From the IMG/VR virus record IMGVR_UViG_3300033148_004051, positions 1 to 36,226 of that record: 36,226 nt of DNA; one strand, written 5' to 3'. The stretch comes from a virus. Of this stretch, positions 1-36,134 are shown one piece after another. Both the position numbers and the translations under genes were made by a program. The notes beneath the pieces are model-generated. The model ran no database searches. It was not told where the DNA came from and saw only the letters and a program-made list of their open reading frames with translations. Within the stretch, counting starts at the first letter, position 1; each line of letters begins with the position of its first letter.

Positions 1-114
1 TCTCTATAGCTGAGTATTCCATAATTTTTATATTATTTTCTAGTAGCTTTTCTTTTAGTAGTTTTTCTTACAAGTTTTCTTGGTGTATTATTTCTAACTA
101 ACTTTCTCTTAACA
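1..114. repeat. Direct terminal repeat, left copy (circular closure)
   Basis: Bases 1-114 are identical to 36113-36226. The gene content runs through the joint without a break: the cysteine-peptidase gene starts inside the right copy, and the 43-aa basic-peptide gene just upstream of it crosses the repeat. An exact repeat of this length at both ends is the usual sign of an assembled circular or circularly permuted phage genome. A genuine short terminal repeat in the virion is less likely but not excluded. Confidence 0.95.
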
Positions 115-1084: not shown

Positions 1085-4000
1085 TTAAAGTTTATATCAA
1101 CCAAAAGATGTAAAATCTCAACTAGATATTCCTCATCTAGTAGCTGTATTATTTACCGCCCTAATATCAACAGTATCTCAACTAGATAATGAAAGTATTT
1201 TATTTATTTGAGCATCAAATTCTGTTCAAGAGTTTGAGTTATGAATAGTAGCTACATTAACACTATTTACAAATAATTTAAGATAAATATTATCTCAAGC
1301 AGTAAACCATAATGTACTTGAATTAAGATAGAAAAAATAATTTCAATCACTAGGAGCTGTATATTTATATGTGCTTGTATTAAAATTACTTCAAGTATCT
1401 ATATTTTCTGTATTAAAAGTAACAATTCATTCTGATGTTGTAAGATTATAAGTACCTGATAATTTAACATCAAATATTTCACTAATACCTCATCCTCAAC
1501 CAGCATCTTGAAAAGTAGGTGCTTCTCAAACTCAATTACTTGTTAACACTTGGTCTACTGTTCAAACTGCAACTGTATCTGATGTTCAGTCTGAAGCCCA
1601 AGTTATAAGTTCTCAATCTGTTCAATCAGCTAAATCAGCTACATCTATATTACTAATAGAGTTTCAAGTACCATTAGCATCAAATGTTTTATTTGTGAAT
1701 GTTGTTGTAGAATCATTAGTAGCATTATCAGCATCATAAGCTTGTACATCACTTCATATAGCTACTCATAAATTAGTTCTAGCTCAAGATTCTGTGCTTG
1801 AATTAGTTCCTCAGTTAGCTATTGGTAATATACCAGTAATATGTGAAGTTAAATTAATTAAAGCTCTTGTAATTACTTGTCAAGCTATTGTAATGTAGTT
1901 AGGAGTTCAAGCTAATGTTACATCTGTTGAATTATCAGTTCAAGCTTGATCTACATCTAAAGCTGTTCTTGCATCTCAAGCACTTGTCGATCAAGTACCT
2001 CATTCAGCTATAGCTAATGCTGTATCAAGAGTAAGTTCTGTAGCGTCTATTTTTCATTCTCAAGTAACTGCAAATGTTTGTACATCTGAACCATTTAACA
2101 CTTCTAATACATCATCTGTATCAGCAGCACTCCCTCTTTTCCAAGTTTCAGCTCATCTAGTTGAATCTGTAACTGTTTCAGGATTAGATGAATTATCCCG
2201 AACTTGCTGTCTTGAAGCAGTACCAACTACTCAAGGATTGTTTCCTCATACAAAAGGTCTTCTATCTACTATACTATCTATATTTGTACTACTACCTTTT
2301 ATAATAATACTAGCAACTGCTGTAAGTCAAGAAGCTTGTCAAATAAATAATCAATAATATATTCAAGCTGCTTCTGCTTCTGCTTCTGAATCATAAACAG
2401 CAGGACTATAGACTAGTACAAAATTATCATCTTCTTTTTGAGTTCTTAATAATGTATGTGAAGCCCATTTATTAACCGATAGAGTAACTATATCTGTTCA
2501 ATTATCATAATATAAAGGAGTGATTAAAGTTGCTTCTGTTTGTAAAGCCCAACTTCAAGAAATATGGTATGCTGCACTAGCTGATATATCTGTATCAGAT
2601 GTTATATCTAATGGTTTCCTTTGTGGGTCATAAAATAATCAAGCTGATTGGTTTACTTGTAAAGCCGTAGAACTTTCTAAATACGTACCTCAAGTGTGAT
2701 ATAAAACTCATATAGCCTTTTCTTGATAATCTCTTTGTAAATATCAAGACTCTGAAATTACAAATCTTAAATCAATAGGAGATTGTAAATTACTTCAAGG
2801 TCAACTTTCTCATTGTACTGCTTGTAATCTAGCTAATGGCAATATTGTTCTTGTTTGTAATGTAGTAAAAACAGTTGCACTATAGACTATAGTACCAGAA
2901 CTAAGTCATACCCAAGTAGAACTATCTCCACCAGCTATTGTAGGAGTGATTGCAGTTCATCAAGCATATACATCTCTAGTACCCTGAGTATAAGAAACTC
3001 AACCTGTAATATTTATTTTAGTTGTATCAGCATTTATTGTAACTACTCAAGTTCAATTAACTAATCAAGTAGCGGCTAAATCATCTGTACTTTTAGAGGC
3101 TTCTGATATTTGAGCATCTCATCAAGCAGCAACTGTTTTAGTTCAAGTAAGGTCTCATACACTTAATGTTAATATTTTATTAGCAGCCACATTATAAGCA
3201 GTATCTGCAGTTATATCACTAGAATTTATATCTATATGTCAATCAACTACTTTTAAGGCTGTAGTTGATGTAGGTGTTCAATCTTCTATTATTACCTCTA
3301 TAGAACCAACAATACCTCATCAATCTGATTGTATTCAAATTGCATTATCTCATTCTAAAGATAAATGATTTATTTCGCAATGTATATGTCAAGTTCAAGT
3401 ATTATTAATACCAATTCAATTTAAAGGAGCATCAACTATTCTTGATTTTAAAATAAGCATTCAAGCAGAAGAATTTAATACACCTGTTTCTGTATCAGGA
3501 GTTTTTATTCTACAAGCATCTACAAAAACCGATCAAGTTCAAGTAGTTCTTATAAGTTTATTAATAGTACAAATTCTTACTGATTGATTATCTGTAACTG
3601 TTATATTTCAATCTACACTTGCATTTGTAGCTTTTATAGTAATATATTCAGGTACTGTTATACTTTCTGTATAAAGTCAAGCATCATTACAATATAATGT
3701 AAATCTATTACTTACACTTGGTGTTTGTGCCGAAGCTGCTGTTATTGCAGCTCAGAATGTTAAAAAAGCTTTATCTGTTGTTAATCAATCATTACTATCA
3801 TTACCATTTTTTCATACATAGTAAATTTGTTCTCAATCAACAACTAAAGATAAATCACTTATTTTTTTACCTCAATCCTTTATTAATTTACCTGTTACAT
3901 CATCAAAAACTGCAATATTTTCATCTACTGCAGAAGCTGGTCATACTACATCTCAAGCACCTCATCAAGGAGTTTCTATAAGCACTCTTCAAGTAACAGG

Positions 4001-4093
4001 ATTTACTTTTACTGGTATTGTTATACTTGAGTCATCTTTACTAACTCATAAAACCGTAGTAACATTATTATCATCTCTCTTAGCATTTGCCAT
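1085..4093 (-). CDS. Tail fibre / receptor-binding protein with C1q-like tip
   Basis: 1002 residues. The N-terminus (MANAKRDDNNVTTVLGVS) is the conserved head of phage tail proteins that begin with an RDxN-VTTLxGVS motif. The middle is repetitive and beta-rich, with right-handed beta-helix-like stretches. Near residue 720 there is the fibre motif ILPIANGGTNSS, followed by FTNKTFDANGTG and by LITWASDGT..QVLTSNGVGEAPTF, all recurrent in phage fibres. The last 130 residues are a C1q/TNF-like domain (STYKYTAPSDGNYFF ... GDTVDIRAVNN ... FTSFGGYKL), a trimeric binding tip. By hand count about 82 of 111 glycines are TGA, so the gene is unreadable in the standard code. It sits downstream of small membrane genes and ends at a terminator. 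Confidence 0.93.
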
Positions 4094-4109: not shown

Positions 4110-4655
4110 TTAAGATTCTGCATATTTCCATTTATATCATCACGCTGATTTTAATTTTCATTTACAGCATTGTCATATATTAGATTTATTTATAAGTAAT
4201 TCTGTTTGGACTTCTATTATAGAAGACCATTTTTTTATAAAATTTCAATCTTTATTGAATTGATTTATTTTTTTACTACTAGGATTATTCTTTCAAAATT
4301 TTCATAGAGCTGATTTAACCACATTTCTACCTAATTTCCTATAAGAATGCTTCATATTTTCACTCATTGTACAATATTCTAAATTTTCTAATCTATTATC
4401 ATCTCTAACTCAATTCTTATGATTAACTTGTAATTTACTTGGTCAAATAAAAGTTAATAAAATTAATCTATGTATATTATAAAATTTTCTTTTTCATTGA
4501 ATATATAATCATATTCTCATATATCAATTTGCTTCTTTTTTACTCTTTAATAATCTTTCTTGTCAGGTTTTATTATAATTAAAAGTTTTTATATCTCAAA
4601 TATTATTTATTTGATATTTTCAATTAAATCAAGGAATTTCTTTAAATTTGTTCAT
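4110..4655 (-). CDS. NUMOD4-HNH-NUMOD1 homing endonuclease
   Basis: 181 residues. An N-terminal NUMOD4-type segment (EIPGFNGKYQINNIGDIKTF, residues 6-25) is followed by an HNH core with H62 and VNHKNGVRDDNRLENLE (77-93), where H79, N81, N87 and N91 fit the family pattern. A C-terminal NUMOD1/IENR1-type DNA-binding segment spans about 129-178 (INQFNKDGNF ... KSNIGQCCKGKLKSAGGYKW). Such proteins cut DNA and spread into new sites. The gene lies between the tail fibre and a short paralogue of the fibre N-terminus, so its insertion may be linked to that duplication. No intron is evident. Confidence 0.93.
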
Positions 4656-5170: not shown

Positions 5171-6784
5171 TTATCTAGTTTTTTCTAAAATCTTTGTTTT
5201 ACCTTTTAATAATTCCTCTCTTTTAATAGCAGATGAAACACCAGGTGTTTTTACAAATTCTCATATAACAGGTAATTTACTTAGTTTATCTCTTATAAAT
5301 CAAGCTGGGTCTTCACTTTTTCTAATTTTACTAGCCTCTTTCTTTAATAAAGTAATTCATGTTTGTAAATCTCAGAATTGTTTATTTAAACTTTTAACAG
5401 ATCATACATTATCAGTTCAAGCAAAGAAAGTATCAGTTATATTTTCTATTTCTACTTTATATCAATCTCTAACTAAATCTAAAGCTTGTAATTCTGCATT
5501 TTCTAAATCAGTAAGAGTTCAAGCATCTTTTTTCTTTTGTAATCTTTCTGTAAGTTTATTTAATTTCTCTTTTCTTGATTCTACTCAAACTAAATCTAAA
5601 GTGTCTTTATTTTCTTTTAAGAAATTCTTTTCCATATTTAACCTTTCTTCATATTTCTTAATAACTCTAGGAGATACTAATCATTCAGCTTTTAAGTTAT
5701 CCACCTTATCAACCAAACTTTTTGTAAGTAATAATGTATTAGATATTTTTTTATTAGCTTGTTGTATTATATCATTTCTTTTTGTTATTATTTCTCTAGC
5801 TGATTTTGATAATGACTCTTTAATATCTTTTACACTTTTAGATTTTGTTATAAAATTTCAAATAGTTTCTAGGGTACTATCAGATACACTATCTCATGCT
5901 TGTAATATTTGAGCTGTGGTTCTTATTCTTTCTTCTTTTAAAGCCTCTTTTTTAAGTTCTTTTCTTTCTTCTAATTTAGTTGTTACTTTTTCTTTTTGTT
6001 TTTTTCATAATTTTATTCATGTTTCAATTAATTCTTCTCATGCTTCTTTCACAATTTTAGCTCATACTCATCATGTAACTACTTCTCATACAGGTAATAC
6101 AGATTTTATTGATAAAACTAATCTTTTTGCTTCAGGACTAGAATTTTTAAAATCTTCTACTTTATCAGATCATGTTTTAATAAAATCTATTACTCATTTT
6201 CAAAAATCAGTTTGTTTAAAATCTTCAATAGTTTCTGCTGTTGCTTTTTCTAATCACTCAGGAGCTAAAGTTTTCAATCAAGCTACTATAACATCTCAAG
6301 TAAAATCTACTCAAGCTCAAAATATATTTAATCATGTTCATATTACTTTATCAAAAGTAGTTCATCATGTAGCATCAATAACATCGTTTAACTCTTTAAT
6401 CCTTTCTAAACTTCATTCTCATGCTTTTAAGAAATCTCATAATAATCATTTTGTATCTTCTAATCTTCAAGCCTGTATTTTAGTAATATCCTCTCATAAT
6501 GTAAAACCTCATTCAGCAATATCAGTGATAATATTTCAAGGAGTTTCTTTTATTGTTTGAATTATTCCAGGTCAAGAAGTTTCTTCCTCAGGTAATTGAG
6601 GAGCTGGAGTAACCCTATCTTCAAGTCATCTCCTAGCTTCTTGAGTTATAGTTTCAAATCAAACCTCTGCCTCTTGTTTTTGTTTAGCCCTAAATTTATT
6701 AAGCATACTAGTAGCATCGGATCTAGTTCAACCTTGCTCTTTTATACTTTGTACTAATTCTTGTTCTAATTCAGTTAAAGCCAT
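5171..6784 (-). CDS. Virion-internal or tail-associated structural protein
   Basis: 537 residues, rich in Lys, Glu and helix-forming residues. It opens with an ELEQELVQSIKEQ-type helix, has a Gly-rich hydrophobic middle (about residues 145-170 and 225-240, with GVGAKIVKEAGEE) and long coiled-coil stretches (about 255-300 and 370-440). About half of its glycines are TGA. I recognise no family. Its place between the 712-aa protein and the fibre, and the lack of a tape measure, suggest an internal virion or ejection protein of a short-tailed phage. That role is inference. Confidence 0.85.
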
Positions 6785-6794
6785 ATTTTTTATA

Positions 6795-8933
6795 TTAAGA
6801 GTTAAATCATTCTGCTTTCATTACAGCCTGAGTAAGTAGTTTAGCATCTATATTTTTTATAGGAGTATTACTATTAGCTCAAGTTATTCTTTTTAATACA
6901 GCTAAATAGTTTGGACTTATTTCTCACACATATACTCTTTGGAATTTAGCTAATGTGTCAGTAGGTTTAATATTTCTACTTCTACCACTTATTTTAGCCA
7001 TAATATCAGATTGTAAAGCTCAACTTCATGATTCTATATTTGGAAACACAAAGTATTCTCTTCCATTAGGACTTAAATATGTTCATGTAGCACCTATTTT
7101 TTTACCATATTCTTCTTTTGTATTTCATGCTGGTATACTATCAGCCGTAATATTTCAAGGATTATTAGTATCTTTAGCCACATTAGTTCAAGTCCTAGCA
7201 ATATTTACTTTTTCTGTAAATCACTCTGTAGGAATTGTCTTTGATATGGTAGGTTGCTCTACCTTATTAAAACCGAATTTTTCATCTAGTTTAAATTGTT
7301 TTCAAGTAGATGATTCACTTCCGCCAAATATATTATCTATTCATATTTCATCTTCACTATCTAATTCAGTTACAAAAGGTTGTAATTCAGGATGTTCGTC
7401 TAAATCTAATACAACACTCCTTGGATCAACTCAATCTCTAAGAGCTTGTTTAATTTGATTTCTAGCTAAAGTTAAATAATTAGTTTGTTGTTTTTCAAAT
7501 AATGTTTGAGCTACAGCTTTAACAGCTTGTCTTTGACCTGAATCTAAATCTCATAATTTAGCTCACTCTTTCACCCATTGTAACATATTTCATAAATCAA
7601 TCTTATCTCCAACTCAAGCACTATTTGCAATACTATTAAATTCACTTTCTCTAACTACTGAAGTAGGATCAAGAGTTTTCATAAAACTAAATAATACAGC
7701 TATATCTGCAGCTCAAGTTAAATCATCTATATTATCTTTTAATCAAGCAAATTGTACAGCAGCATTTCTAAAATTTTTAACTCATTCTTTACCCTCAAAT
7801 TCTTTTCTTCCTTTTTCTCTTCTGTTAAATTGAGTATCTGATACAAAGTTTCATTCTTCATCAGTAGATAAAGCTAATATTTTATTTATTTCAGCTTCAG
7901 TTTTTCATTCTTTAATTAAACTAGCTACTGATTTTCAGATCACACTATCTTCTTTTAATTCAGCATTAGTTAATATCTTTCAGTAAGTTAAATTTTGTTC
8001 TGTAGTTAGTCATGTAGTAGCTATACTTTCTTCATCTTGTCTTTTAATATCAGCCTTAATTTGTTCTTTTTGTTTAAAGGCTTCATTTTCTTCTTCTAAT
8101 TTCATTCTTTTAGATTGTATACCTAATTGTCAAATTAATTTATTCTTTTCTTCCTTTGATAATGTACTTCATTCTATTTGAGCTGTAAGGCTAGCTACTT
8201 CAGTTTGTCTATCTAATTCTCTAGCTTTTAATATAGCCTCAATAGATGTGTCCATATCTTTTATACTAGCAGCTGTTAAAGTTTGTCATTTAACAAGGCT
8301 AACTAATTGCTCTCTTAAAGGTGCTGATCTAGCTTCCCTTATTCTACTAGCAGCTATATTAGTAATAGCACCTCATTCAGCTTCTAATCATGCTTTAATA
8401 TTAGCTAAATCTTCTTGAACTGCAGCAGTTTCTTCTCTAAAACCTGTTTGTAAATCAACTAATTCTCATCTTCAAGATACTTCTCTTGCCTCAGTTAATT
8501 TTTGTTCTTCTGTCTTTTTTCAAGCTATTCTTCAAGCAACTTTTTCTCTAAGAGTTTTTTGTTCTTTAGTTATTATTGGCTCTTCAACAGTAGGTTCAAC
8601 AACTGGCTCTACAATAGGTTCAATAACTGGTGTATCTTTCTTTTTAGCAGATAAACCAAATTTTGTTTCTTTTATCTCAGCTTTTTCAGATTCTGTTAAA
8701 TCTCTTCATAATCTAGTAGCTTCTGATTGTCATAGTGTTTGTTTTTTGACTCTATTAGCAATAGATTTTTTAATATCTCACGATAAAGCAGCCTTTGATT
8801 TCTCAAAAGCTCATTGTTCCTTTAAATCTCATCTAATATCTGCCTCAGCTTCTTCCTTAGATAGTCCTCTTCATTTTAGTTTTTTAAATCTATCACTTAA
8901 TCTTTTTTTAAGATTTCCAGTATTTACTGCCAT
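6795..8933 (-). CDS. Large structural protein with C-terminal NNPGN domain
   Basis: 712 residues. A Lys/Glu-rich N-terminal region leads to a Pro-Val-Glu linker near residue 125-140 (VIEPIVEPVVEPTVEEP), then a long helical, coiled-coil body. The last 150 residues carry NNPGNI followed by GATGTYLSPNGREYFVFPN and an FQRVYVGE-type segment. NNPGN(I/L) with a following F..F..P motif is typical of the muramidase-like domains found in phage virion proteins, so this may be a virion-associated cell-wall enzyme used at DNA entry. No catalytic residue could be assigned with certainty. It lies next to the head-tail connector gene in the tail operon. Confidence 0.85.
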
Positions 8934-8935
8934 AA

Positions 8936-9643
8936 TTAATAAGTTAATGTATTATAAAAATCAGAATTAACTGCTGTAACATCTTTTCATCATACAACAA
9001 TATTATTCGTTGTATTTCTAACCTCTTTTTTATAAGAAGCATCTAGTTTTTCAAACTTAATTAAATATCTATCAGCACTCGCAAAATCCTCTAGTCTATT
9101 GTAAGCTTCGTTTAAAGCATAGTAATATATAACATTCTCAAACCCTTTCTTTATTTCTAATTCTGTTGTTTGGTCAGTTGTAACAGCTGGATCAGTTACT
9201 AATGCTGTTGCATATTCATTAGCATTTAACTCAATAGGATTAGAGTCTGTTTCAGGAGTAGGATATATAAATAATTCTGTTTTGTCAATAGTCCAATATA
9301 CTGGAATATCAGAATTAGCATTTTGATTACTTAATCTTTGAAACTCTATTATAGATAATTCGTTAGGGTAATAATCTACTCATCATGAAGTTATCTTAAT
9401 AGTTGATATTTTATCAACATTATCAGGAATAACATAATTAGCTTGTGTAGCAACTGTTCATCAAGAAATTAATATACCTGCTTTTTTTAGATAAGTTTTA
9501 GATATAGTTAATACTTGTGTTTGAATATCATTAATATCTTCTTTAATTGATTCAGTTTCTTCTGCTGAGTCATTAAATGTATTAGATAATCAAGTTTGCC
9601 TTACTATTTTAGCAAACATATCTCAAAAAGTCTTTTTAGCCAT
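8936..9643 (-). CDS. Head-tail connector / adaptor-like protein
   Basis: 235 residues. An N-terminal helical part (FGDMFAKIVRQTG ... QTQVLTISKTYL) is followed by a mixed beta part with IPVYWTIDKTELFIYPTPE, then an acidic helical segment (FENVIYYYALNEAYNRLEDF) and a C-terminal stretch. The YPTPE-type motif and the long C-terminal helices are usual in phage adaptor (P22 gp4-like / tail tubular A-like) proteins that sit between portal and tail. The gene is two bases from the 712-aa gene and follows a possible promoter at 9671-9697. Assignment by pattern and position, moderately sure. Confidence 0.78.
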
Positions 9644-9670
9644 AATTACTAGTTATTAATTATTAATATT

Positions 9671-9697
9671 ATTATAATGTTTTACACTTAAACGCAA
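9671..9697 (-). promoter_or_regulatory. Possible promoter (TTGCGT-N15-TATAAT)
   Basis: TTGCGT (9692-9697) with a consensus TATAAT (9671-9676) 15 bases downstream on the minus strand. The -35 overlaps the stop of the 156-aa tail gene. Spacing is one base shorter than in the other promoters, so the call is weaker. Confidence 0.35.
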
Positions 9698-10158
9698 GTA
9701 TAATTAAAATTGAAGTTATTAGCTTCATCGTTTCTTGTTACCGTTAATGTAAATCAGTCTGAATCCATACTTTTTAATTCTGCTTCTATATCTGGGTAAT
9801 TTCAAGAATCTTGCCATTCTAAATTTAATATTTTATTTGTAGAATAACTATTACCACTAAAAATAGTATCACTATTATCATGTTGAAATATACAATTTCA
9901 TGTACTTCAGTCCGTAGCACTTCAGTTACTCATTACAGCATGTCAATTTACCGCTGGATTAGCATTAACTATAATTGTAGTTGGTTTAAATCATACTCAA
10001 GTAACTGAAATATCATAAGGAACTGTTGCAGCTCATACTACTTTATATCAAGAATTACTATTAGCTCATGAATCTATTCCTGGTAAATTCTTTAAATTAT
10101 TATAATCTATTTTTTCTCAATCTAATCATAATCAAGAGTGTGAATGGTTTTTTATCAT
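9688..10158 (-). CDS. Tail or baseplate-type structural protein
   Basis: 156 residues. It starts MIKNHSHSGLGLDGEKIDY, a HSH-x-G-x-D/E opening that recurs in phage tail and fibre-attachment proteins. The rest is beta-rich: GYKVVGAATVPYDISVTGVGFKP, a Gly/Asn-rich middle and a TLTVTRNDEANNF end. The ATG overlaps the stop of the upstream 485-aa gene in a TAATG junction, so translation is probably coupled. Exact location in the particle is unknown. Confidence 0.8.
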
Positions 10159-11615
10159 TAGAATATTTTTAATGAAATAAGCTTTGTGTTATCTGTTGAA
10201 CTTATAAAGTTTCATCACATTTTAAATCTAAATTGAATTTTATCAGTTCTTTTTCAAATACCTCTTAATATTTTATCAATATCTATTCAAGTTAATCAAA
10301 TTGTTCATAATACAGCATAATTAGAAGTATTATTTAATCTATATTCTACTTGTAATCTATTATCAGCATCTTTAAAAAGTCATTGGACTCATTGTACTTT
10401 ATTAGGTTTTCAGTTTTTATCTCTTAATTCATATACAACAGTTTCCATATATGGAGCAACAGAAGTATTTCATGATGATAATTCTTCTATTCTATATCTT
10501 TTAGTTAAACTAACTCTATCTATATAATCTCATGAAACTAAACTATTTCTATATCATACAATAAACAAATCATTAGTCGTGTTTATATTTGTTATATAGA
10601 TAGCATTTACATCTCATTGAGTAGATTTTATTTCTCAACCTCAACTTAGAGGTCAGTATTTATTTAAACTGAAACTTTCTCACTCCTTTACTCTATTAAA
10701 TACATATATTCAATTTCTAGGAATACAGAATATCATACCATTTTTATATTTTCTAACTGCTGGTTTTCTAACAATAGAATTGGATAATATATTAAAATTA
10801 GGTATTTGTATTACTGGGATAAAATCAGCCCCATTATATCTATATACAGTTCCGTCTATTCAGGCAAATACAAATAGTGTATTTTCTATTTGAATCATAG
10901 CAGATATACCTCATAAGCTTGTTTTTATTATTTGGCTTGCATTAACACTAGCTCAGTCCCATAAATAAAAGTTTCAAGCTTTAGTTCATATTGCTAATTG
11001 TCATCAAATAACTTCTAAACTTCTTATTTGTTCATTTACTGGTAATAAAAATTTATTATTAGTAAAAATCCAATTTCAAGGATTTGTTGGATCAGAAGCT
11101 CAGTCTAATTCAGCTAAAGCATATCAATCAGATATATATAACCTATTATTAAATTCTTTAAAGAAATGCAAATCATCACTTCATCAATTTAAAAAGGTAG
11201 TACCACTTCACCATGTAGGAGTATCAGTAAATCAACCAGCTATTGTAGTATTTGTACTTCTACCTAAAGTAGTTCTTGAAGCATAAAGTAAATAATCTTG
11301 ATATGTAGCAAGGTCTTGATTATCTCAAATATTTCAATTTGTATGTAGTAAAGTCCATGAAGTACCAGTATTTTTCCAAATCTCCTTTCAAGTTACTCAA
11401 CCTAAAACTGTTCAATCAAATGTAACAAAAGACAATACATCTTCACTTAATGAAGTAGATGTATCTTGTTCTAATCTAAAGTTAATTTGTGCTACTCATG
11501 GTTCAGTCCATATATCTATTCAAGACATATCTACAAATCAGTCTGTTATTTGTTTTGTTTCATCATTGATAATAGCTTTTCAGAAATCATCTATGGATAA
11601 TAATTGCTTAGACAT
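10158..11615 (-). CDS. Beta-rich tail tube / hub protein (propeller-like)
   Basis: 485 residues with almost no long helices and many short beta repeats containing aromatic-Gly turns: LFVFAGIDGTVYRYNGADF, NRLYISDGYALAELDG, LAIGTKAGNFYLWDG. This periodicity is that of a beta-propeller, as in podovirus tail hub proteins (P22 gp10-like or tail tubular B-like). TGA codes for a large share of its glycines. It is preceded by the coiled-coil gene (8-base overlap) and coupled to the 156-aa gene. Role from fold-like pattern and order. Confidence 0.82.
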
Positions 11616-12804: not shown

Positions 12805-13080
12805 TTAAGCATCATTACCAGTTGCTCTAAGTACAGAAACTGAGTAAGTAGCTTCTGCAGTAGATGCAGATGCTAAAGTAACAGTAACCTTACCATCAGA
12901 AGCTATAGTAGCGATTTCAACAATTGCATCAGCAGCTCAAGCTGAAGGATATACTCCAACAATTTTACCACCAACAACTTCAGCATCAGCAGCAGTTGTA
13001 ACAGTTGTTCCTGATATAGCTATTACAGCTTGTACAAGTTTAATATCTCATACTTTATCAGCAGTTCATTTATATAACAT
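12805..13080 (-). CDS. Small head decoration-like protein
   Basis: 91 residues, Ala/Val/Thr-rich and beta-prone (VQAVIAISGTTVTTAADAEVVGG ... GKVTVTLASASTAEATYSVSVL). Few charged residues and no hydrophobic anchor. Its composition, its use of GGN rather than TGA for most glycines and its place near the capsid gene suggest an abundant capsid accessory protein such as a decoration or head-fibre protein. A homing endonuclease gene separates it from the major capsid gene. No family recognised with certainty. Confidence 0.75.
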
Positions 13081-13095: not shown

Positions 13096-13707
13096 TTAAT
13101 TAAAGATAGATTTTCATCTATGTATTCTCACTCTAAGAGTAGATACATTCTTATTTAGGATTCTAGCCCATTCGGCGATAGAATTAGTTTCTCAATTATG
13201 AGTTATATTGTGATTATGTCTAGTATTATTAGCTTGAGTTAATCTATCTGTCCATCTACAGTTATCTTTACAATAGTGTCAGTCATTATCTTCTCTATCT
13301 ATTGTAAGTCATTGTTTGTAAGTTGGTCACATATCTTTATAGAAGTCTTCAAACGTATTCCATAATAATTTAATTCATCTCTTACCATAATTATGGTAAG
13401 ATTTATTATTTTCATTATTACATCTATCTTTAATTCAGAAATATACTTTATATATTTTAGAACTAGACATGCAATTTGTTTTACTTCTATCTCATATAAG
13501 TTCTTTTTTTAAGCAACCACAAGACTTAGACTCTCAGCTTCTTAAAATTTTTAAACTAACATCTCTTAATGTTCAACATTCGCATTTACATTTGAATTGC
13601 CTATTCTTAATTAATGTTCTTTTAGTTTTTGGAACTTCTGACAATATTTTCCATCTTCAATATATATCTCATTTTTCTATTTGAACAATTTGCCTAGAGT
13701 GTGTCAT
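13096..13707 (-). CDS. Zinc-finger / HNH-type phage homing endonuclease
   Basis: 203 residues. The N-terminal half has cysteine pairs (CKCECG at 40-45, SCGC at 62-65) as in the zinc-ribbon of phage endonucleases. The second half has YGKRGIKLLWNTFEDFYKDM, LTIDREDNDGHY and CKDNCRWTD (about 108-154), the core pattern of the HNH/AP2-like group I-type homing nucleases. The C-terminus (NSIAEWARILNKNVSTLRVRI) resembles a NUMOD-like DNA-binding helix. It is inserted between the capsid gene and the 91-aa gene and has a consensus promoter just upstream. Confidence 0.9.
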
Positions 13708-13737
13708 AATTAATGTAATTACCAAGTAAGTACTTTC

Positions 13738-13788: not shown

Positions 13789-14835
13789 TTATGCTGTAAT
13801 ATCATCCATATATCAATTACGTCTAGGATTTTTACACATCAAGTTACCCATTAAGAATAAGTGAGATATGAAACCATATTGGTCAGTAGGCATTAATGTT
13901 GATGATACATTGAATCCATAAGATTTTTCAGTATTAACATCATATTGTCCTTCAATTTCAGCAGATTTTAACATTACTGGAGTAGTTCCAAACATGTTAT
14001 CAACTGTACCAAATTCCCAAGTTTTTGTATTTAAGAAAAATATATGTTCAACAGTACATTTTTCATCAGCTACGATTGGTACACCTTTATAATATAAAGA
14101 AGTAAAACCAGCTTCTCAAGCAATACCACCGATAGCAGTTTTCATTAAACTATTAGTAGAATCGTTTGCGTTTCTTTGATTGTTAGTAGCTGTAAATAAT
14201 GCAGCGATAAAATCAAAAATTGCTTCAGTAGTAAGAATTAAATCTACTTTTTCGTTACCTGAGTTACAACTTCTTAACATTGCGTCAATTGCAGTGAAAG
14301 AAATAGTTGTAGTAGTAGTATCGTAATTACCTTTAATAGTTGTGTAAGTAGCTCTTGATAAACCACCGTAAGTAGCAACATTAGTACCATCATCACAACC
14401 AGCAACTAAACCAAGAAAATCTTTGTTAGAATTACCTGTACCATCTCAATATAAAAGAGTACCTATTCCATCAGCCATTTCTTGTGAAGCTTCTTCTCAT
14501 TTTTGAACTTGTAAATCTCTTACAGATTCTTTAGTTTGTGATAATGATAATTCATCACCAGGTAAAACGATTGGTTGTTCATAAGTTCTAGGAGAAAATT
14601 CTAATTTTTGAGTTGTATTAACAACATTAGTATTAAATCTATCTAGTCCTGAGAAAGAACCTCAGTTACCTGCAGTAGTAGTTTTAACTACATATCTTTT
14701 TACATTTGATGTAAATGCACTTTTTCTTGTCCCTAACATAACTTGTAGGATTAAATTTCAACCTAAAACTGTATCAACAATTTTTGGAGCAATTTGATCT
14801 CTCATGTTATTTTGTAAATCTGTTCAGAAAGCCAT
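13789..14835 (-). CDS. Major capsid protein
   Basis: 348 residues, HK97-fold type by size, position and pattern. It opens MAFGTDLQNNMRDQIAPKIV, continues with RYVVKTTTAGNGGSFSGLDRF and SPRTYEQPIVLPGDELSL, then QVQKGEEASQEMADGIG (the long spine helix), a Gly/Thr-rich insertion, LRSCNSGNEKVDLILTTEAI, and ends KNPRRNGYMDDITA. Only about 7 of 34 glycines are TGA, against about three quarters in the tail fibre, as expected of the most highly translated gene. Scaffold and portal genes precede it; a promoter at 15674-15701 serves both scaffold and capsid. Confidence 0.93.
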
Positions 14836-14860: not shown

Positions 14861-15616
14861 TTATTTCATATTTAAGTTACCCCATTCAGTTCATCTTACA
14901 AATCAAGATACTTTTGAAGAAGAGCCTCTATTACTTCTGTTTGATTGAGCTGCTTTCTTTTTTGCAACTTCTTTGGCTTCTTCTACTTTACCTTGTTCTT
15001 TTGTAGTGTTAAATTTTTGGTATAACTCAAATGCTTTATCAATACTTCACTCTGTATAATCGTCAGCTATTTTAAAGATCTCATTCTCAATATCTTGTGT
15101 TAAATCAAATCAAGTGTCCTTAATAGCTTCAAGAGCTTCATTAATCATTCTATCAGCTTCTTCATCTGCTAATTTATCTTGAGTTTCTTTTTTAGATAAT
15201 TCTTTTTCATATTGCTCTTTTGTATAATCCTGTATTTCTTTAGGAGTCATTCATTCAAGCTCTTCATCTGTAATAGGCTTACTTTCAAGAGCATCTAATC
15301 TATCCATAAGTTTTTGCATTTTCTTCTCAGATTCTACATTCTTACTTTTTAAATCTTTATTCTCTTTAAGCTTTTCTTGCCATCTAGGATGTTTATGAAA
15401 AGGAGTATCTTTATCTAACTCGAGTTCTTTAGGGTCTGTTTCAGCGTCTTTAGGAGTTTCTTCTTTAGCGTCCTTTGGAGTAATTATTTCCTTAGGTTCT
15501 TCAGTTTTAACCTCCTTAGTTTCTTCAGGTAACGAGTCTGAAAAGCTTACTAGATTTTCTTCTTCATTATCAAATTTAGAAAAAAAACTATCTGCTTGTG
15601 CGTTTATATCTGTCAT
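14861..15616 (-). CDS. Scaffolding protein
   Basis: 251 residues, strongly acidic and helical. An N-terminal disordered, Pro/Glu/Lys-rich part (EETKEVKTEEPKEIITPKD) is followed by a coiled coil (about 88-115, KENKDLKSKNVESEKKMQKL). After a TGA glycine at 122 come EIQDYTKEQYEKELSKKE and a Lys-rich C-terminal region with basic residues, the part that usually contacts the capsid protein. Its position between portal and major capsid is canonical. It guides procapsid assembly and is then lost. Confidence 0.88.
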
Positions 15617-17442: not shown

Positions 17443-19113
17443 TTAATGTTTAAATTTTGCTCTAAATTTTCATCAGCTAAACTTTACTTCCATTCAAGAA
17501 GCTGCAGGTTCACTACTTCATATATTATGTTTTTTTTCTTTAATTGCAAATTGTCATTGTAGTAGTTTTGTTTGGTTTGCTATAGCCATTGCCATAACTC
17601 TATCGAAGTGATTACTTACCTCTTCATCAAAACTTGCTGCTTTTAAATCTCAATTAGCAAACGCCCTCATCTCTCTAAGTAATGGTAAAGATTTTATAAT
17701 TAAAGATCAGTCATTAAAATCTCTCTGTAAATCAAATAACATCTTAGGTTTACTAGTAGAATTTGTATACCATCAATATCTATTTTCTTTTCATCAACCT
17801 TTTTTATTAATTACCTTTTGAGTAGTTAATAAGTTTCAATACCCTTTCTCTTGCATAGATGTTATAACTGCATTTCAAATACTGTTTCTCTCAGGTGTTA
17901 CTGTACAATCTCAATAATTTTCACTTGCTGCAATTAATTCACTAGCTAACAATCATGTAGGTATTTGATTACTCTCAAACTCTGCAACTTGTTCTCATGT
18001 ACTAATATTAATAACTTGTATAACTGAACTATCTAATCAGTATCATTCTGAAACATCGGCAGCTATTTTATAATCATCTAATCAATTATATTCTTGCCAT
18101 ACTTTCCAGTTTCAATCTTTTTCAAATTCATAAGTTTTTGCAATCTCAATAGCTTGATCTATCATCTCAACATCAAAGAATCTTTCTCAATCAACAACTG
18201 GTAAATTTAACATCTCTTGTTCAAATATCTTTCTACCATCTTTGTTCAATGTTCTTTTCAATGATTCAAGACTTGTAACTCTTTTCTCTTTAGTTCTTAC
18301 TTCATTAAGTTTATTTGCCTCTCTATCTGTTTTAACATATTTATCTTTCCATGTTACCTCATCATTTTCAATTACTGCTTTCTCATATATAACTCATTCA
18401 GGATTGTTTTCTAATTTATCATATAACCAAGCAACACTTCAGGTATCACTAATCTTATTGCATAAAAAGTATACTATACCATGAGGAGCTATTGCTGGAA
18501 ACATCTCGTCAAAATGTTCTATAACTTGTCTTGTTAAAGCTGTAGACTTCTTCGTCTTATTATTCTCAAAGTCATCATAAACTAAGTAATCAGGTCTTAC
18601 AGCATTATATATCATTCCTCTAATAGGTTGTCATGTTGTTATTGCTTGGACTCTTACTCAGTTACTTGTAAGAAAATCAGCAACTCAAGTCTTTTTACTT
18701 TTCTTTTCTTTACTATCATTATCAAAGAATAATTGTCAGAAGTCCCTTATAATTAAGGGGTTAGTTTGTAATTCAATAGATATATCTAATAAAGCATTCT
18801 CTGCAATCTTCTTATCTAAAGATCAATACAACATCATCTTTCTGTCTGCATAACATATCCTTCTGATAAAATCTATCTTAGCCCATGAAGTTTTAGCAGA
18901 TCATCTAAATTCACAATCTGTCATATATCTAGGTTTTCAATACTCCCCTAAACTTTGACTAAATAAACATCTCTCTTTATGAAACTCGGGGCTAATATGA
19001 GTGAAATAATGTCTGAAGTAATAAATCCCAAAAAGATACAGTGAGTTCTTACACAAACCATATCTTGCTTTTGAGTCTTTTAATAATTCAAATATATCTT
19101 TTTCTTTAGTCAT
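17443..19113 (-). CDS. terL: Terminase large subunit
   Basis: 556 residues, the ATP-driven DNA-packaging motor with a C-terminal nuclease. Walker A is FRGSAKTS (about 69-76), whose glycine 71 is encoded by TGA while W77 is TGG. Walker B is DYLVYDDFE (about 175-183). RNase H-like nuclease residues follow at AADVSEGYGLDSSV, with further acidic residues near the C-terminus. GQPIRGMIY (161-169) is the usual motif before Walker B. The gene is the strongest single proof of UGA=Gly here. It lies between the small 86-aa gene and portal, as in most head operons. Confidence 0.97.
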
Positions 19114-19186: not shown

Positions 19187-19447
19187 TTATTTCTTTTGAG
19201 CTGGTTTAATTCTTTTCTTCCTCTTTGGTTTATCAGGTTTAATCTCATCAAACTTTACTTCTCTTTGGTAATCCTCTTTAATATCGCTATTATAAGCTAC
19301 GTTAAAAGTAAGCTTATCTTTAAGGTATTTACCTTTTCATTTAAACTTAAATCCCATTTCAATTAATTCTTCTCATAATTTAACTGCTTTGTCTTGCTCT
19401 TTCCATATTATAGTAATGGTAGCTTTCATATTGTCTGGTAAATTCAT
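19187..19447 (-). CDS. Small basic protein between terminase genes
   Basis: 86 residues. The first half is a small alpha/beta stretch (MKATITIIWKEQDKAVKLGEEL) and the end is a highly basic tail (KPKRKKRIKPAQKK), suggestive of nucleic-acid binding. No family recognised. The ATG overlaps the stop of the small-terminase gene by one base (TAATG). A 73-base spacer with repeated GGCTT motifs separates it from the large terminase start. Confidence 0.75.
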
Positions 19448-19863
19448 TATATTAATCAATTAGATTTTAAAATATTCTTAAACTCATCTGAGTCATCTAC
19501 TTCATAACCAAGGTTTGTATTAGTATTTTCAGTAACTTGTTTATCAACCCATTTGTAATTATTCTTTAAATGAAAGATAGTTCAAGTAGGGTTTAATTCG
19601 TTCTTTAATAGTCATTTAACCGCCCTAGTTTCAAGTATTTCTTTTATTGTGGACGACATACTAGCTATTTCCTCATTATCTCAATACCTTGATACACGAT
19701 CTTCTCTTGGTATTGTAAGCCATTCATTATATCTCTTTCTAGTATAATCTTTATCTTCAAATAACTCTCCTATATAAATATAATCAGGGTTATCATGTAA
19801 TTCTTTTAATAATATTTCTACCTGTTCTAACACATATTCTTCTGTATATATTTTATCAGCCAT
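19447..19863 (-). CDS. terS: Terminase small subunit
   Basis: 138 residues. It starts MADKIYTEEYVLEQVEILLKELH, continues with YIYIGELFEDKDYTRKRYNEWL and, after a TGA glycine at residue 61, with SSTIKEILETRAVKGLLKNE. The segment AxxGLLKNELNPTGTIFHLKNNYKWVDKQ is the small-terminase signature in which a gene-wide helical domain ends in F.LKNNYxW.DK. Small terminase selects viral DNA and hands it to the large subunit. Its stop overlaps the start of the next gene. Confidence 0.88.
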
Positions 19864-20492: not shown

Positions 20493-20855
20493 TTATTGGT
20501 TATTAATTAATTCAGGATTAGAGTATATGTTACCTATTATTTCCATACTTATTTCATTTTGTGTTATAATATCCCAAAACATCCATATTCTATTACTATC
20601 TAATGCTCTCAATTCAAATCATCAATTCTTAAAAACTATCTTTGTTTTAATATATCCGTGTGCTTTTTGATATAATTCAACTACATCCCCCTCATATATC
20701 TCTACTCAGTTCCTATCTTTAAGTCCTGTGTATTGCAATAAAATATTATTAGTTTTTTGGAAATTTGTATTAGTAAAAAAATCACCTATAAACTCTCAGT
20801 TTTTAAACATAACATTTATTTTTTTATCCCAAGCTCTAAATTTTATCTCTCTCAT
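20493..20855 (-). CDS. YopX family protein
   Basis: 120 residues with the full YopX signature: MREIKFRAWDKKINVM at the start, LLQYTGLKDRNGVEIYEGD in the middle (about 40-57) and EIIGNIYSNPELI near the end (about 105-116). YopX proteins are frequent in temperate and lytic phages; they form small decameric beta-barrel-like assemblies, function unknown. Glycines in the conserved NG turn positions are TGA, again supporting the code. Located 3 bases from the next coiled-coil gene. Confidence 0.92.
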
Positions 20856-21914: not shown

Positions 21915-22025
21915 AATATTAGAGTTAATACTAAAACAAGCTAATATAAGAAAGTAGGAAATCTTATTATTAGCTAGTATTAATCCTACTTAATATACTA
22001 TATATTATATGAATTTATTAACTAA

Positions 22026-22202
22026 TTACAAGTTTTTATCAAATCTAGTTACTAGTTTTTCCACCGACTCTTTTACTTGTTCTTTTGTTCCAACTATCTT
22101 TAAGCGACCTTTTTCTTTTTCTAGCCTTAGAGATAGTTCTACAATGTTTCAGTATTCTATGCTTTCTGAAAATGGATATTGTTTTAGAATGTTTTCTAGC
22201 AT
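22026..22202 (-). CDS. Hypothetical protein
   Basis: 58 residues (MLENILKQYPFSESIEYGNI ... KVKESVEKLVTRFDKNL), charged and helical. Not recognised. It follows the zinc-site gene by 9 bases. About 110 bases of AT-rich sequence without an obvious gene separate it from the 29-residue peptide. Confidence 0.6.
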
Positions 22203-22211
22203 TGTTATATA

Positions 22212-22388: not shown

Positions 22389-22395
22389 CTTTATA

Positions 22396-27618: not shown

Positions 27619-28071
27619 TTACTTATTAATATCTAAACTTTCTTTTTGTTCTTGTAATCTTCTTTTATCTAAATCTGTTAATTTATTTAGTACAGATTCT
27701 AGTCAAAACTCTTTTTCTTCTTTTTGTAAATCGTGCAATATTTTATCTCTTTTAATTCTAAAGTTTTTCTTTCTAGTTTCATATGTTCTTATTTTAAAAT
27801 CTTTTTGAAATTTTTCAAAATCTTCTCTTTCTTGCTGAGTTGGTTCTTTATATTCTTTTTGTGGAGCTTCTATTGCTAAATACCTAACTTTATTCTTCTT
27901 ATCCTTAATATAGTTAAAATATATATCTCTATCAAGATGTGTAATTGTTATATAGTTTCTCTTGACTGCTATTGCTTGATCTATAGCTGTATTTATTTCT
28001 TCCTTAGTATGTTCAACAAATATTTCTTCTCAATCATTCATTACAAGTACTGTTCAATTTATAGAGTTCAT
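27619..28071 (-). CDS. Hypothetical coiled-coil protein of replication operon
   Basis: 150 residues. A small N-terminal alpha/beta part (MNSINGTVLVMNDGEEIFVE) is followed by a Lys/Glu-rich coiled coil (about 80-140, QQEREDFEKFQKDFKIR, KLTDLDKRRLQEQKESL). Not recognised. It overlaps the replication-initiator gene by 13 bases. Confidence 0.7.
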
Positions 28072-28928
28072 GTTTCTTTAGTTATAGTAATATTATTCTT
28101 TGCTTTAGATTTTGCATTATCTATCATTTTCACAAAATAGGTAACTCAATCTTTTTTCTTACGGAACTTTTCAATACTTAGTATTTGATATTTCCAAAAG
28201 TCATCATTTAATGTATAATCAATAATAAAAGATATTTGTTTTTCAGAAAAATCATCTAGTTCTTTTAATTTTCTAATTACATCACACCATTTACTTATAA
28301 GAGTATCTCTTCATTTATCTTTAACTAAAGATATTATACTTGGAGTATTATCTTCTAAATGATAATCTAAAAATTTACTACATATTATATATTCAAAAGT
28401 ATTTTTATCTATATTATTTATAACTAAATCTGTTATATCAGTATCGGGAGAAGTTTTAACTTCTTCCTCTAGTAGAGTAGAGTTAGGTAAAGTTAAGTTA
28501 AGTAAAGTTAAGTAAGGTATATCAAGGTCCTTATATGCACCTTGTAAGGTACTTATTAGGTCCTTATATGGTAGTATATTATTTAGCTTATTAGAGCCAT
28601 TTTCTTTAACTTCTCTTTCTATTCACTTCCATAACTTATCATTTTCACTTGTTATATTCTGATTCTTAACAAAATTAATAATAACAACTATTCAATCTTT
28701 AAAATATATCTTTTTATCTTCTTCAAACTTAGTAAACATATTTATTATGTCTAATTTATTTATTCATGTATCATAACTTATTCTCTTTATAGATATTTCA
28801 TATATTCAACATATAGAAATTAGAGGATTAGTTAATATATATAAGAATAACAACTTTTCATTAGGTTTTAAATCTTCAAACCATATATCAGTCCATATTG
28901 AATCTGATATATATCTTTTTTTAGCCAT
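28059..28928 (-). CDS. DnaD-like phage replication initiator
   Basis: 289 residues. The N-terminus (RYISDSIWTDIWFEDLKPNE KLLFLYILTNP then GIYEISIKRISYDTGI) is the winged-helix start typical of phage replisome organisers. A linker with PYLTLLNLTLPN and an acidic stretch follows. The end (QISFIIDYTLNDDFWKYQIL ... FRKKKDGVTYFVKMIDNAKS) matches the C-terminal pattern FW..QI.S..KFR.K. It probably opens the origin and loads a host helicase, since no phage helicase is present. Confidence 0.82.
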
Positions 28929-29673: not shown

Positions 29674-29701
29674 ATTATATAGTACTTTCTATTTATTGCA
29701 A
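29674..29701 (-). promoter_or_regulatory. Promoter (TTGCAA-N16-TATAAT) in front of structured leader
   Basis: TTGCAA (29696-29701) overlaps the last codons of the NinB-like gene; TATAAT lies at 29674-29679, 16 bases away. Reads into the leader RNA and the replication genes. Confidence 0.8.
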
Positions 29702-30124
29702 ATATTTATCATAATATTCTAATAACTTTGGATCATCTGCTCACGTTATTTTTAAATCATATCTAGTATTACACCATTCAATCATCTTTTCTATAAACTT
29801 AATTCATTCTTGATCTGTTAAATCTGAAGTTCATTTTTTCGGATAAACTGTTTTAAACTTTCATACTCAAACTTCTTTTACTCATATTAAAGCACATTTC
29901 ATAATATGTTTTATTTTTTCTTCATCGTTTTCTTCATTTCATAGTTTAATTTCTTCTTTTGATATTAAACTAAATAGAACATGGAACATCTTATTTTGTG
30001 GTAAAGTACGAGTTTTCTTCTTTTTTTTAATAGTTAAGATATACTCTGAGTTATCATCTATTCTATCTCTTAAATATCATAGGATAAAATTAAGTATATC
30101 TTTTATTGTTCAAACTTTTCTCAT
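29693..30124 (-). CDS. NinB-like recombination protein
   Basis: 143 residues. KKKKKTRTLPQNKMFHVLFS (about 33-52) is the NinB/Orf signature of a basic run followed by R(T/S)LPQN. Later comes KFKTVYPKKGTSDLTDQEG and FIEKMIEWCNTRYDLKI, corresponding to the C-terminal NinB helix. NinB (Orf) binds single-stranded DNA and helps annealing proteins in phage recombination. It follows the Gp157-like gene by 6 bases and its end is reused as the -35 of a promoter. Confidence 0.85.
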
Positions 30125-30130: not shown

Positions 30131-30574
30131 TTAATTATATTTTACTTCTAACGAAACCTTTTGTTCTATATGTACTCATTCAACTATTACATCATTTTTC
30201 ATATCTTCTTTAATATGTTTTTTATCAATCTTTATAGTAGTTTTTACTACTTCTTCTTTATATTCATCAGGTATTTTTGACTCTTCATCTATAATTAAAC
30301 TTCAAGCAGTTGTTTTAATTCTTACCTCAACTCAATTTGCTTCAAACTTATCTATTCATGCTTTTTGTAATATCTCTATTCAGTTATTCTTAATCTCTAC
30401 CTCTCTTGCATTTAATTCAGTTATCATTGCTTGTCATTTAGTTATTCTACTAACTAATTCACTTTGTGCTAACTCTTCTTGTAGAGCTGTTATTTGATTA
30501 TTATAGTCTAATTTTTTAGATGTAATATCTGATAATTCAGCAATTAATGCTGGTGTAGTTGTTATTGTTGTCAT
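30131..30574 (-). CDS. Gp157-like protein
   Basis: 147 residues. A coiled-coil N-terminal half (LSDITSKKLDYNNQITALQ ... ELVSRITKGQAMITELNAR) is followed by a beta half with FEANGVEVRIKTTAGSLIID, KIPDEYKEEVVKTTIKIDKK and VEGVHIEQKVSLEVKYN. This is the layout of siphophage Gp157 family proteins, often encoded beside single-strand annealing proteins. Function is uncertain; a link to recombination or host-range resistance has been suggested for the family. Confidence 0.8.
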
Positions 30575-30591: not shown

Positions 30592-31221
30592 TTAAAATGC
30601 TGGATCTTTTTTAGGTTCTTTATCTAATTTTGCTTCATAATAAGTTTTAATTTCTTTTCTCATCTCTAGTCATAGTTCATATTTCTCCTCTATAACCTTA
30701 TAAGCTTCAAAATGGTCTTTATAATTAGTCTTCTTTTTTAAAATTTCAAATGTTTCTTTTGTAAATTCTGGTTTAATTACTTCTTCTTCCTCTGGTAAAT
30801 CCTCTCATCTATAAACATATAATCAAATTCAATGCATTGCTAAGGCTTTTGTAAAAGCTCTTTGTATAGCTTTATTTATATCAAATTGAGTTGCTGCCTG
30901 TACTTCCTTTTCTCAATATTTAGTTGTATAACTATATTTTTCAGCTTTCATTGCCTTATTAGCTCAATCCATTACTGGTAATCTCACTATATGTTCAATA
31001 TCATTTACAGTTACTCAAACCTTTACATCTATTCAAAATTTACTTTCCCAAAAAGGAAATCAATCTATATTTTCATAAGTAGTATAATTACTATTTGGAT
31101 ATTCTTTTTTTACCATATCCCAAGCATTAGCCCATGATATATAAGAAAGGTTTTGTTTTTTACTTACTTCTCATTCAATTTTATTTAATTCAATGAAATA
31201 ATTATCTTTTTTATCTGACAT
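30592..31221 (-). CDS. Single-strand annealing protein, DUF1071 (Sak-type)
   Basis: 209 residues. Family motifs: LSYISWANAWDMVKKEYP (about 25-42), LPVMDGANKAM (about 81-91), FDINKAIQRAFTKALAMHGI (about 113-132) and LYVYRGEDLPE. The protein anneals complementary single strands in phage recombination, the RecT/Red-beta role. Together with Gp157-like and NinB-like genes it makes the recombination module. Its start overlaps the HTH-gene stop by 11 bases. Confidence 0.9.
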
Positions 31222-32214: not shown

Positions 32215-32424
32215 TTAAATAATCTTCTTATCTTTTAATTTGTTATATAAATCTATATATTCTTTATTCCGATCCTCATGTTTATTTTCACAAGTGCAAT
32301 TTATTATATGAGATAATTTATATATATGCTCTAATGATTCTGTTTTAGTTATTATATCTCAATCATCTATATTTACTAAGCTTATGTGTTCTATAAGTTC
32401 TAGGAACTTTTCTTTTTTATTCAT
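32215..32424 (-). CDS. Hypothetical protein
   Basis: 69 residues (MNKKEKFLELIEHISLVNID ... YIDLYNKLKDKKII) with one CTC motif in the middle. Helical and charged. Not recognised. Confidence 0.65.
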
Positions 32425-35349: not shown

Positions 35350-35371
35350 CAAAAAAAGAGGTCTAGCCTCT
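35350..35371 (-). terminator. Terminator after cysteine-peptidase gene
   Basis: Arms AGAGG/CCTCT (35357-35361, 35367-35371) with a 5-base loop, then seven U on the minus strand. It overlaps the TAG stop and ends the lysis transcript. Confidence 0.78.
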
Positions 35372-36134
35372 AATTTTTAAATACTTCAAGTAATTTCTTA
35401 TAAGCTTTACTATCTTTTCAGTAATTTTTAATTACTCAAGCAAGTATTTTAGCTTTTTTAAAAATACTAATTCATGTTAGCTTTTCTTTTAATCTCCAAG
35501 TTTGCAGTCCATAATTAATATAGATATATCCTTGTTTGAATAATTCTCCACCTCTTAACCATTCTCTTGTTACTAATATTTTATTATGAGTATGATCTCA
35601 ATTATAGTTATCTATAATATAGTAGTTATTATCTTCTTTTATTATACATATAGAATGTCAGTATGTATTACCAGTATGCTTAATAGTATTGATTTCTCAA
35701 TCATCTTGAGCATCTTTATAAAAAGATCATCATGCAATTATTCAAGTATGAATAACATATCATAAATCAAGAAGTTTAAAAAAATCATCAGATAAATTAA
35801 CAACTCTTTTAGTTTCTATATCATATCATAATGCACGATAATATCTTCTTACTTCATCTACTGCTTTATATATCCGACCTCCTTTTTCTTCAGTAGCTCA
35901 TCAATTAGTCTTACAATCTTCCCATATAGTTTTTAATGCTAATGTTTCAATAGCTTCAATTCAAAAGTTATTAGTAAAAGCAGTAAGTCAAGCCGTAGCT
36001 GTACAACACATTTTACTTACTAATTTTTGGTTATAAATAAATTGATTATCAGAAAAAACATTTTGTGGTGCTTTTTCTTTTCAATTCACTATGTGATCAT
36101 TATTATTGTATTTCTCTATAGCTGAGTATTCCAT
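35370..36134 (-). CDS. Papain-fold cysteine peptidase, probable lysin
   Basis: 254 residues. The likely nucleophile is C43 or C44 in NQKLVSKMCCTATAGLTAF, a papain/C39-like helix start. The histidine is H160 in GNTYGHSICIIKEDN and the third residue D175/N176 in YYIIDNYNGD; order C-H-D/N and the beta context fit C1A/C39-like peptidases. C-terminal region basic and helical. As last gene of the holin/XhlA cassette it is probably the endolysin that cuts peptidoglycan cross-links, though a virion or prohead protease cannot be excluded. The start lies in the terminal repeat and is continuous on the circular map. Confidence 0.82.

What the first reader, a model, noticed from the sequence alone, without database searches (positions are those of the whole stretch)
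17443..19113. Phage genome written in code 25: UGA is glycine
Seen: in all minus-strand genes TGA is frequent inside conserved proteins. In the terminase the Walker A motif FRGSAKT has TGA at the glycine, and the nearby Trp is TGG. In the tail fibre ANGGT uses TGA then GGA for the two glycines; YopX NG turns and the HNH GGG run are also TGA. Known: UGA=Gly occurs in Absconditabacteria and Gracilibacteria. Inferred: the phage infects one of these hosts and has adapted its whole gene set. No phage release-factor or suppressor-tRNA gene was found, so it relies on the host code.
Basis: partly seen in the sequence, partly recalled or inferred. Interest (0 to 1): 0.85.

Follow-up and report, generated by a model that had tools for sequence, protein, structure and literature searches.

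The report
Complete phage genome with UGA as glycine
This is a complete genome of a tailed phage in which the usual stop codon UGA means glycine, as in the tiny Gracilibacteria/Absconditabacteria it probably infects; such phages were already known, but this lineage also seems to read CGG as tryptophan and keeps UGA out of its most-expressed gene.

Summary
The window is a complete phage genome (114-bp identical ends) of about 50 minus-strand genes with 485 in-frame TGA codons; genes end in TAA (47) or TAG (3). Four tests give glycine: family scores with TGA as G, W, C, R or S; 50 standard-code Sak homologues (42-bit margin over the next residue); exchange with code-25 relatives (modal residue Gly in 100 of 149 informative columns, Trp in none); and standard-code capsid, portal and terminase homologues. 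No release factor and no canonical tRNA gene was found, so decoding is inferred to be the host's. The closest named phage by portal, and one of two by full-length capsid, is a Saccharibacteria (TM7) phage. Phages sharing code 25 with Absconditabacteria/Gracilibacteria were published in 2023, so this is a new member of a known kind.

Two things look new. (1) UGA supplies about 70% of glycines but is scarce in the major capsid gene in all ten phages that have it (13% against 65%), with other signs of selection for translation. (2) In the window's clade CGA is almost absent and CGG falls on conserved Trp columns, while a sister clade uses CGA and CGG as Arg: probably a record of host dialects. 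The host was not identified.

The parts
17443..19113 (-). Terminase large subunit, 556 aa, 29 in-frame TGA; Walker A FRGSAKT with TGA at Gly
   Evidence: phrog_38 7.8e-27 with TGA=G, lost with TGA=W; codons
15703..17433 (-). Portal protein (P22-like), 26 TGA; holds the YIEWW site that is CGG in two relatives
   Evidence: PF16510 and phrog_156
14861..15616 (-). Probable scaffold between portal and capsid genes (by position only)
   Evidence: order; no family hit
13789..14835 (-). Major capsid protein, 7 TGA against 27 GGN (UGA avoided)
   Evidence: phrog_9953 2.2e-41
12805..13080 (-). Small conserved virion-region gene, also low in TGA (3 of 9 Gly)
19447..19863 (-). Probable terminase small subunit
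   Evidence: PF16677 2e-5 (below Pfam cut-off), phrog_606 8.6e-4
1085..4093 (-). Tail fibre, 1002 aa, 82 TGA, C-terminal C1q domain; CGG at 2198-2200
   Evidence: PF00386 2.1e-9
5171..11615 (-). Tail/virion genes (5171-6784, 6795-8933, 8936-9643, 9688-10158, 10158-11615)
   Evidence: position; conserved in relatives; families of unknown function at most
20493..20855 (-). YopX-family protein, TGA at NG turn
   Evidence: PF09643 4e-21; PDB 2ox7 has Gly there
30592..31221 (-). Sak single-strand annealing protein, 10 TGA; best standard-code yardstick
   Evidence: PF06378 4e-35; 50 homologues
30131..30574 (-). Mu Gam-like end-protection protein
   Evidence: phrog_253 4.4e-15
29693..30124 (-). NinB-like recombination mediator
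   Evidence: phrog_72 1.8e-17, PF05772
28939..29514 (-). HNH endonuclease, TGA TGA TGA = GGG
   Evidence: PF01844 1.8e-11
28059..28928 (-). DnaD/DnaA-like replication (helicase loader) protein
   Evidence: phrog_6251, phrog_2514
4110..4655 (-). NUMOD4/HNH homing endonuclease, 16 TGA of 17 Gly
   Evidence: PF07463, PF13392, phrog_59
13096..13725 (-). HNH endonuclease inserted next to the capsid gene
   Evidence: phrog_374 1.9e-50
35370..36134 (-). 254-aa protein with Cys and Gly-His conserved in its one relative, perhaps a C39-like peptidase (unproven); CGG at 35874-35876 aligns with TGG in L031
26479..26769 (-). Unknown protein; CGG at 26527-26529
32215..32424 (-). Unknown small protein; CGG at 32269-32271
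1..114 (.). Direct terminal repeat identical to 36113-36226: circular map, complete genome of 36,112 bp

Best explanation
The window is a complete genome of a tailed phage that uses NCBI code 25: UGA is read as glycine throughout and only UAA and UAG end genes. Shown by sequence: UGA sits at conserved glycines and exchanges with GGN codons in relatives, while TGG remains tryptophan; the genome carries no release factor and no canonical tRNA gene. Inferred: translation relies on a host that lacks release factor 2 and has a glycine tRNA reading UGA, that is a Gracilibacteria/Absconditabacteria (class JAEDAM01) cell. The phage belongs to a lineage with standard-code relatives, its nearest named one being a Saccharibacteria (TM7) phage. 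UGA is the commonest glycine codon, probably because the genome is AT-rich, but selection on translation keeps it out of the major capsid gene, which implies that UGA is the slower or riskier glycine codon in the host. In the window's clade CGG probably also means tryptophan, as predicted for some hosts.
For: Coding density 9% (code 11) against 73% (TGA sense). Pfam/PHROG bit scores for G / best of S, C, R / W: YopX 75.8/74.6/65.7; Sak 121/111.2/95.4; TerL phrog_38 95.3/80.6/no hit; portal 62.4/50.9/38.4. 50 standard-code Sak homologues: 5 of the 9 TGA columns scored are 86-100% Gly (three of them 50 of 50), summed log-odds G +24.2, next residue -18.0 bits. Ten code-25 contigs: modal sense residue Gly in 100 of 149 informative window TGA columns, Trp 0. 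Standard-code MCP/portal/TerL homologues: Gly 36% under TGA against 6% background. PDB: RB49 gp17 EGRGQD against E-TGA-Y-TGA-LD; YopX 2ox7 Gly. No tRNA/tmRNA over threshold, no RF. MCP: 42 TGA/281 GGN against 1686/898 in other genes over ten phages, each phage p<1e-4, with TTC, ATC, TAC, AAC raised. Portal best hit among 50,697 phage records is the TM7 phage MG269973; it is also one of only two full-length MCP hits.
Against: No proteomics. No host link by spacer or prophage: host genomes could not be searched. A weak tRNA-like element (21292-21354, below cut-off) leaves a small chance of a phage-borne odd tRNA. Some TGA columns carry other residues in distant homologues (e.g. portal 46, where most standard-code homologues have Trp, though the code-25 consensus has Ala), as expected of 27%-identical alignments. 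That MCP is the most expressed gene is general knowledge of tailed phages, not measured here.
Confidence: 0.93

Rival explanations
1. UGA is tryptophan (code 4, Mycoplasma-like host or code-4 phage).
For: UGA=Trp is the commonest bacterial UGA reassignment and low G+C fits Mollicutes (general knowledge).
Against: TGA=W lowers the main family scores by 10 to 26 bits or to no hit; 0 of 149 columns have modal Trp; TGG is retained at Trp columns (1308 of 1525 aligned pairs).
Confidence: 0.01
2. The phage recodes UGA itself inside a standard-code host, with its own suppressor tRNA or release factor, as some TAG- and TGA-recoding phages do.
For: Recoding phages of standard-code hosts are known (PMC10746230, discussion); a weak tRNA-like element lies at 21292-21354.
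Against: No tRNA over threshold, no RF in an apparently complete genome; no tRNA in the second complete genome or other relatives; the tRNA-like element lacks a normal anticodon arm and was not found in the other relatives scanned; TGA runs through genes of all regions.
Confidence: 0.04
3. In the window's clade CGG is simply a rare Arg codon, and its hits on Trp columns are neutral or harmful TGG>CGG changes or errors.
For: Only two alignment columns (three phage lineages) are informative; the other CGG sites have no informative homologue.
Against: The same portal CGG occurs in two diverged phages and a second contig (L005, L147, L011), where the other relatives have TGG and standard-code homologues Trp or Phe; CGG 8, CGA 0 against A:G of 6-12:1 in other codon boxes, P about 5e-9; only 2 of 1083 AGA/AGG/CGT/CGC sites have modal Trp.
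Confidence: 0.25
4. The low UGA of the capsid gene reflects its history (recent transfer from a standard-code phage) rather than selection.
For: Standard-code phages encode 34-38% identical capsids.
Against: Capsids are 76-92% identical across the code-25 clade and UGA comes and goes column by column, so synonymous sites have had time to turn over; other codon families shift in the way expected of highly expressed genes.
Confidence: 0.12

Closest known systems
Code-25 phages of Absconditabacteria and Gracilibacteria (Liu et al. 2023, PMC10746230)
   Same: UGA=Gly, dense in-frame TGA, code shared with the host
   Different: Their hosts were linked by spacers, ours is not; no CGG=Trp or capsid UGA avoidance was found in the passages read (CGA is not mentioned).
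TM7 phage DolZOral124_53_65 (MG269973)
   Same: Portal (28.5% over 82%) and full-length capsid (29.8%) matches; phage of a CPR bacterium
   Different: Standard code, 52% G+C, encodes a chaperonin Cpn60
Standard-code IMG/VR phages with YIEWWTD portals (e.g. L125, L127, L139)
   Same: Same capsid-portal lineage, capsid 34-38% identical
   Different: Code 11, no recoding
CGG (and CGA) to Trp in Absconditabacteria, CGG to Trp in some Gracilibacteria (Shulgina and Eddy 2021, PMC8629427)
   Same: CGG falls on Trp columns; UGA=Gly
   Different: That is a bacterial code; here a phage clade. CGA stays Arg in related phages and is absent in the window's genes
Phages reading AGG as Met without their own tRNA (same paper)
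   Same: Phage follows a host's sense-codon reassignment and relies on host tRNAs
   Different: Different codon, amino acid and host phylum

Membership tests
NCBI genetic code 25 user | UGA read as glycine | tested here: met
NCBI genetic code 25 user | Only UAA and UAG terminate | tested here: met
   TAA 47, TAG 3, none in frame
NCBI genetic code 25 user | UGG stays Trp | tested here: met
   1308 of 1525 aligned pairs
NCBI genetic code 25 user | All other sense codons standard (CGG=Arg) | tested here: inconclusive
   CGG on Trp columns in the window's clade, on Arg columns in the sister clade
Phage of Gracilibacteria/Absconditabacteria | Match to a host CRISPR spacer or prophage in a host genome | not testable with these tools
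   no handle to such genomes; the one genome-contig hit is a misbinned phage contig
Phage of Gracilibacteria/Absconditabacteria | Code shared with host, no own recoding genes | tested here: met
   (phage side only)
Self-recoding phage (suppressor tRNA or RF) | Encodes suppressor tRNA or RF | tested here: not met
   weak tRNA-like element only
Tailed phage (Caudoviricetes) | TerL, portal, major capsid protein of tailed-phage families | tested here: met

The most novel reading that the evidence does not exclude
A phage clade carries a double variant code, UGA=Gly plus CGG=Trp with CGA nearly unused, while its sister clade keeps CGA and CGG as Arg. Phage genomes then record which host dialect each infects, and the lineage has crossed a sense-codon code boundary. 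In the same phages UGA is selected against in the capsid gene, so UGA-glycine is translated less well even in its native host.
Probability: 0.65. Interest if true: 0.65.

Novelty: new member of a known kind. Interest (0 to 1): 0.48.

Why it matters
It adds a complete code-25 phage genome, places it in a lineage with standard-code and Saccharibacteria phages, and gives a control for reading these genomes. The capsid pattern bears on why UGA is so common in these organisms: mutation pressure rather than preference, contrary to the codon-optimisation idea raised by Liu et al. (PMC10746230). The CGG pattern, if true, makes phages a sensor of sense-codon dialects in uncultured hosts and asks how a virus survives a host whose CGG changes meaning.

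Tried and rejected
UGA=Trp, Cys, Ser, Arg (scores). TAG recoding (density 11%). Host by spacers: the genome search needs a genome handle and none of this clade could be reached; the single genome-contig scan gave only CAKZOX010000144.1, filed in a Campylobacteraceae MAG but itself a code-25 phage contig with 77-bp identical ends. Structure of the 35370-36134 protein: AlphaFold with two sequences, pLDDT 42.7, not used. The tail-fibre CGG at 2198-2200: no homologue found. CGG in genes 26479-26769 and 32215-32424: no usable homologues. ARAGORN at lowered thresholds gives dozens to about a hundred chance hits per genome, not used. The 80 Sak loci hold no clear code-25 phage. No near-identical named phage.

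Full report
Observation. Under the standard code the window has no long genes. With TGA as sense it resolves into about 50 head-to-tail minus-strand genes with 485 in-frame TGA codons, no in-frame TAA or TAG, and ends TAA 47 and TAG 3. Coverage by ORFs of 100 aa or more is 9% under code 11, 73% with TGA as sense and 11% with TAG as sense. The first and last 114 bases are identical, so the record looks like a complete, circularly mapping genome of 36,112 bp.

What UGA means. Four lines agree on glycine. (a) The same protein translated with TGA as G, W, C, R or S and scanned against Pfam/PHROGs: G scores best for YopX, Sak, terminase (phrog_38) and portal; W loses 10, 26, all and 24 bits. (A minor secondary hit of the terminase, phrog_14112, prefers S or C by under 2 bits.) (b) 50 standard-code Sak homologues: three TGA columns are Gly in 50 of 50, two more in 49 and 43 of 50; log-odds +24.2 for G, -18.0 for the next residue. 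(c) Codon exchange with ten code-25 contigs: of 149 window TGA columns with a sense codon in relatives, the modal residue is G in 100, A 10, S 7, W 0. (d) Standard-code capsid, portal and terminase homologues: Gly is 36% under TGA against a 6% background. Solved structures agree at terminase EGYGLD/EGRGQD and at the YopX NG turn.

How it works. No tRNA or tmRNA over threshold and no RF-1 domain is encoded; the second complete genome and the other relatives scanned have no tRNA. Decoding by the host is therefore inferred: a glycine tRNA reading UGA and no release factor 2, as described for Gracilibacteria and Absconditabacteria (PMC8629427, PMC10746230; class JAEDAM01, PMC13092985). A weak tRNA-like element (21292-21354, 22.9 bits, cut-off 29) has good acceptor and T arms but a truncated middle; it is shared by the near-identical L003 but was not found in other relatives.

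Kin. Eight IMG/VR contigs carry terminases 69-95% identical, more matched by capsid, and CAKZOX010000144.1 is a 34,567-bp contig with 77-bp identical ends, binned in a Campylobacteraceae MAG. These close relatives are all code 25. Standard-code cousins have capsids 34-38% and portals 27-29% identical. Among 50,697 named phages the portal's best match is TM7 phage DolZOral124_53_65 (28.5% over 82%), which is also one of two full-length capsid matches (29.8%; the other, an unassigned phage from Manatee Spring, is marginally stronger by E-value). This ties the lineage to CPR hosts without proving the host of the window.

UGA in the capsid gene. The capsid gene has 7 TGA and 27 GGN while the rest of the genome has 480 and 161 (p 2e-10). 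The same holds in all ten phages with a capsid gene: pooled 13% against 65%, each p<1e-4 (relatives are not independent). The TGA positions differ between phages, and other codon families shift as in highly expressed genes (TTC 44% against 17%, ATC 23 against 5, TAC 35 against 16, AAC 36 against 20). I infer selection on translation against UGA. In PMC10746230 dense TGA was tentatively linked to efficient translation; this pattern points the other way.

CGG. Window genes have 4 CGG and 0 CGA in about 9,900 codons; six contigs of its clade have 8 and 0, where other boxes favour A over G 6-12 to 1 (P about 5e-9). The sister clade of four has 23 CGA and 3 CGG, and CAKZOX, nested in the window's clade, has 5 CGA and 0 CGG. 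In the sister clade CGG and CGA lie mostly on Arg columns; in the window's clade CGG lies on Trp: portal YIEW[CGG]TDE in L011 and L005 (and L147) against TGG in the other relatives and W or F in distant homologues, and codon 87 of 35370-36134 (KGG[CGG]IYKAVDEVR against KGMWLYKGVDLVR in L031). Only 2 of 1083 other Arg-codon sites have modal Trp. Two columns are few, and a rare-Arg reading keeps about 25%. CGA=Arg in relatives argues against an Absconditabacteria-type host (CGA and CGG both Trp) and fits Gracilibacteria, in which CGG is Trp in some and Arg in others (PMC8629427).

Verdict. The finding is right. As a code-25 phage it is a new member of a known kind; the capsid pattern and the probable CGG=Trp dialect are the parts that were not found in the literature searched.

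Noticed in passing
window 21292-21354 (-): tRNA-like element with perfect 7-8 bp acceptor stem and T arm but truncated D and anticodon arms, in a 510-nt gap without minus-strand genes; also in L003, not found in other relatives.
   Followed up: partly
L017/L028/L029 (CAKZOX010000144.1): Contig in a Campylobacteraceae MAG is a code-25 phage with 77-bp identical ends: a binning error in a public genome.
   Followed up: yes
window 1085-4093 (-): Tail fibre ends in a C1q domain (PF00386, 2.1e-9), a possible receptor-binding head.
   Followed up: no
window 22009-22467 (+): 152-aa plus-strand ORF without TGA, shared with L003, in a region with few minus-strand genes; no family match.
   Followed up: partly
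window 4110-4655, 13096-13725, 25865-26344, 28939-29514 (-): Three HNH-type endonuclease genes and a fourth HNH-like candidate (25865-26344, by eye only), rich in TGA, so homing genes here are adapted to code 25.
   Followed up: no
L020 (MG269973) 22216-23658: TM7 phage and L021 encode chaperonin Cpn60/GroEL-like genes that were not recognised in the window.
   Followed up: no
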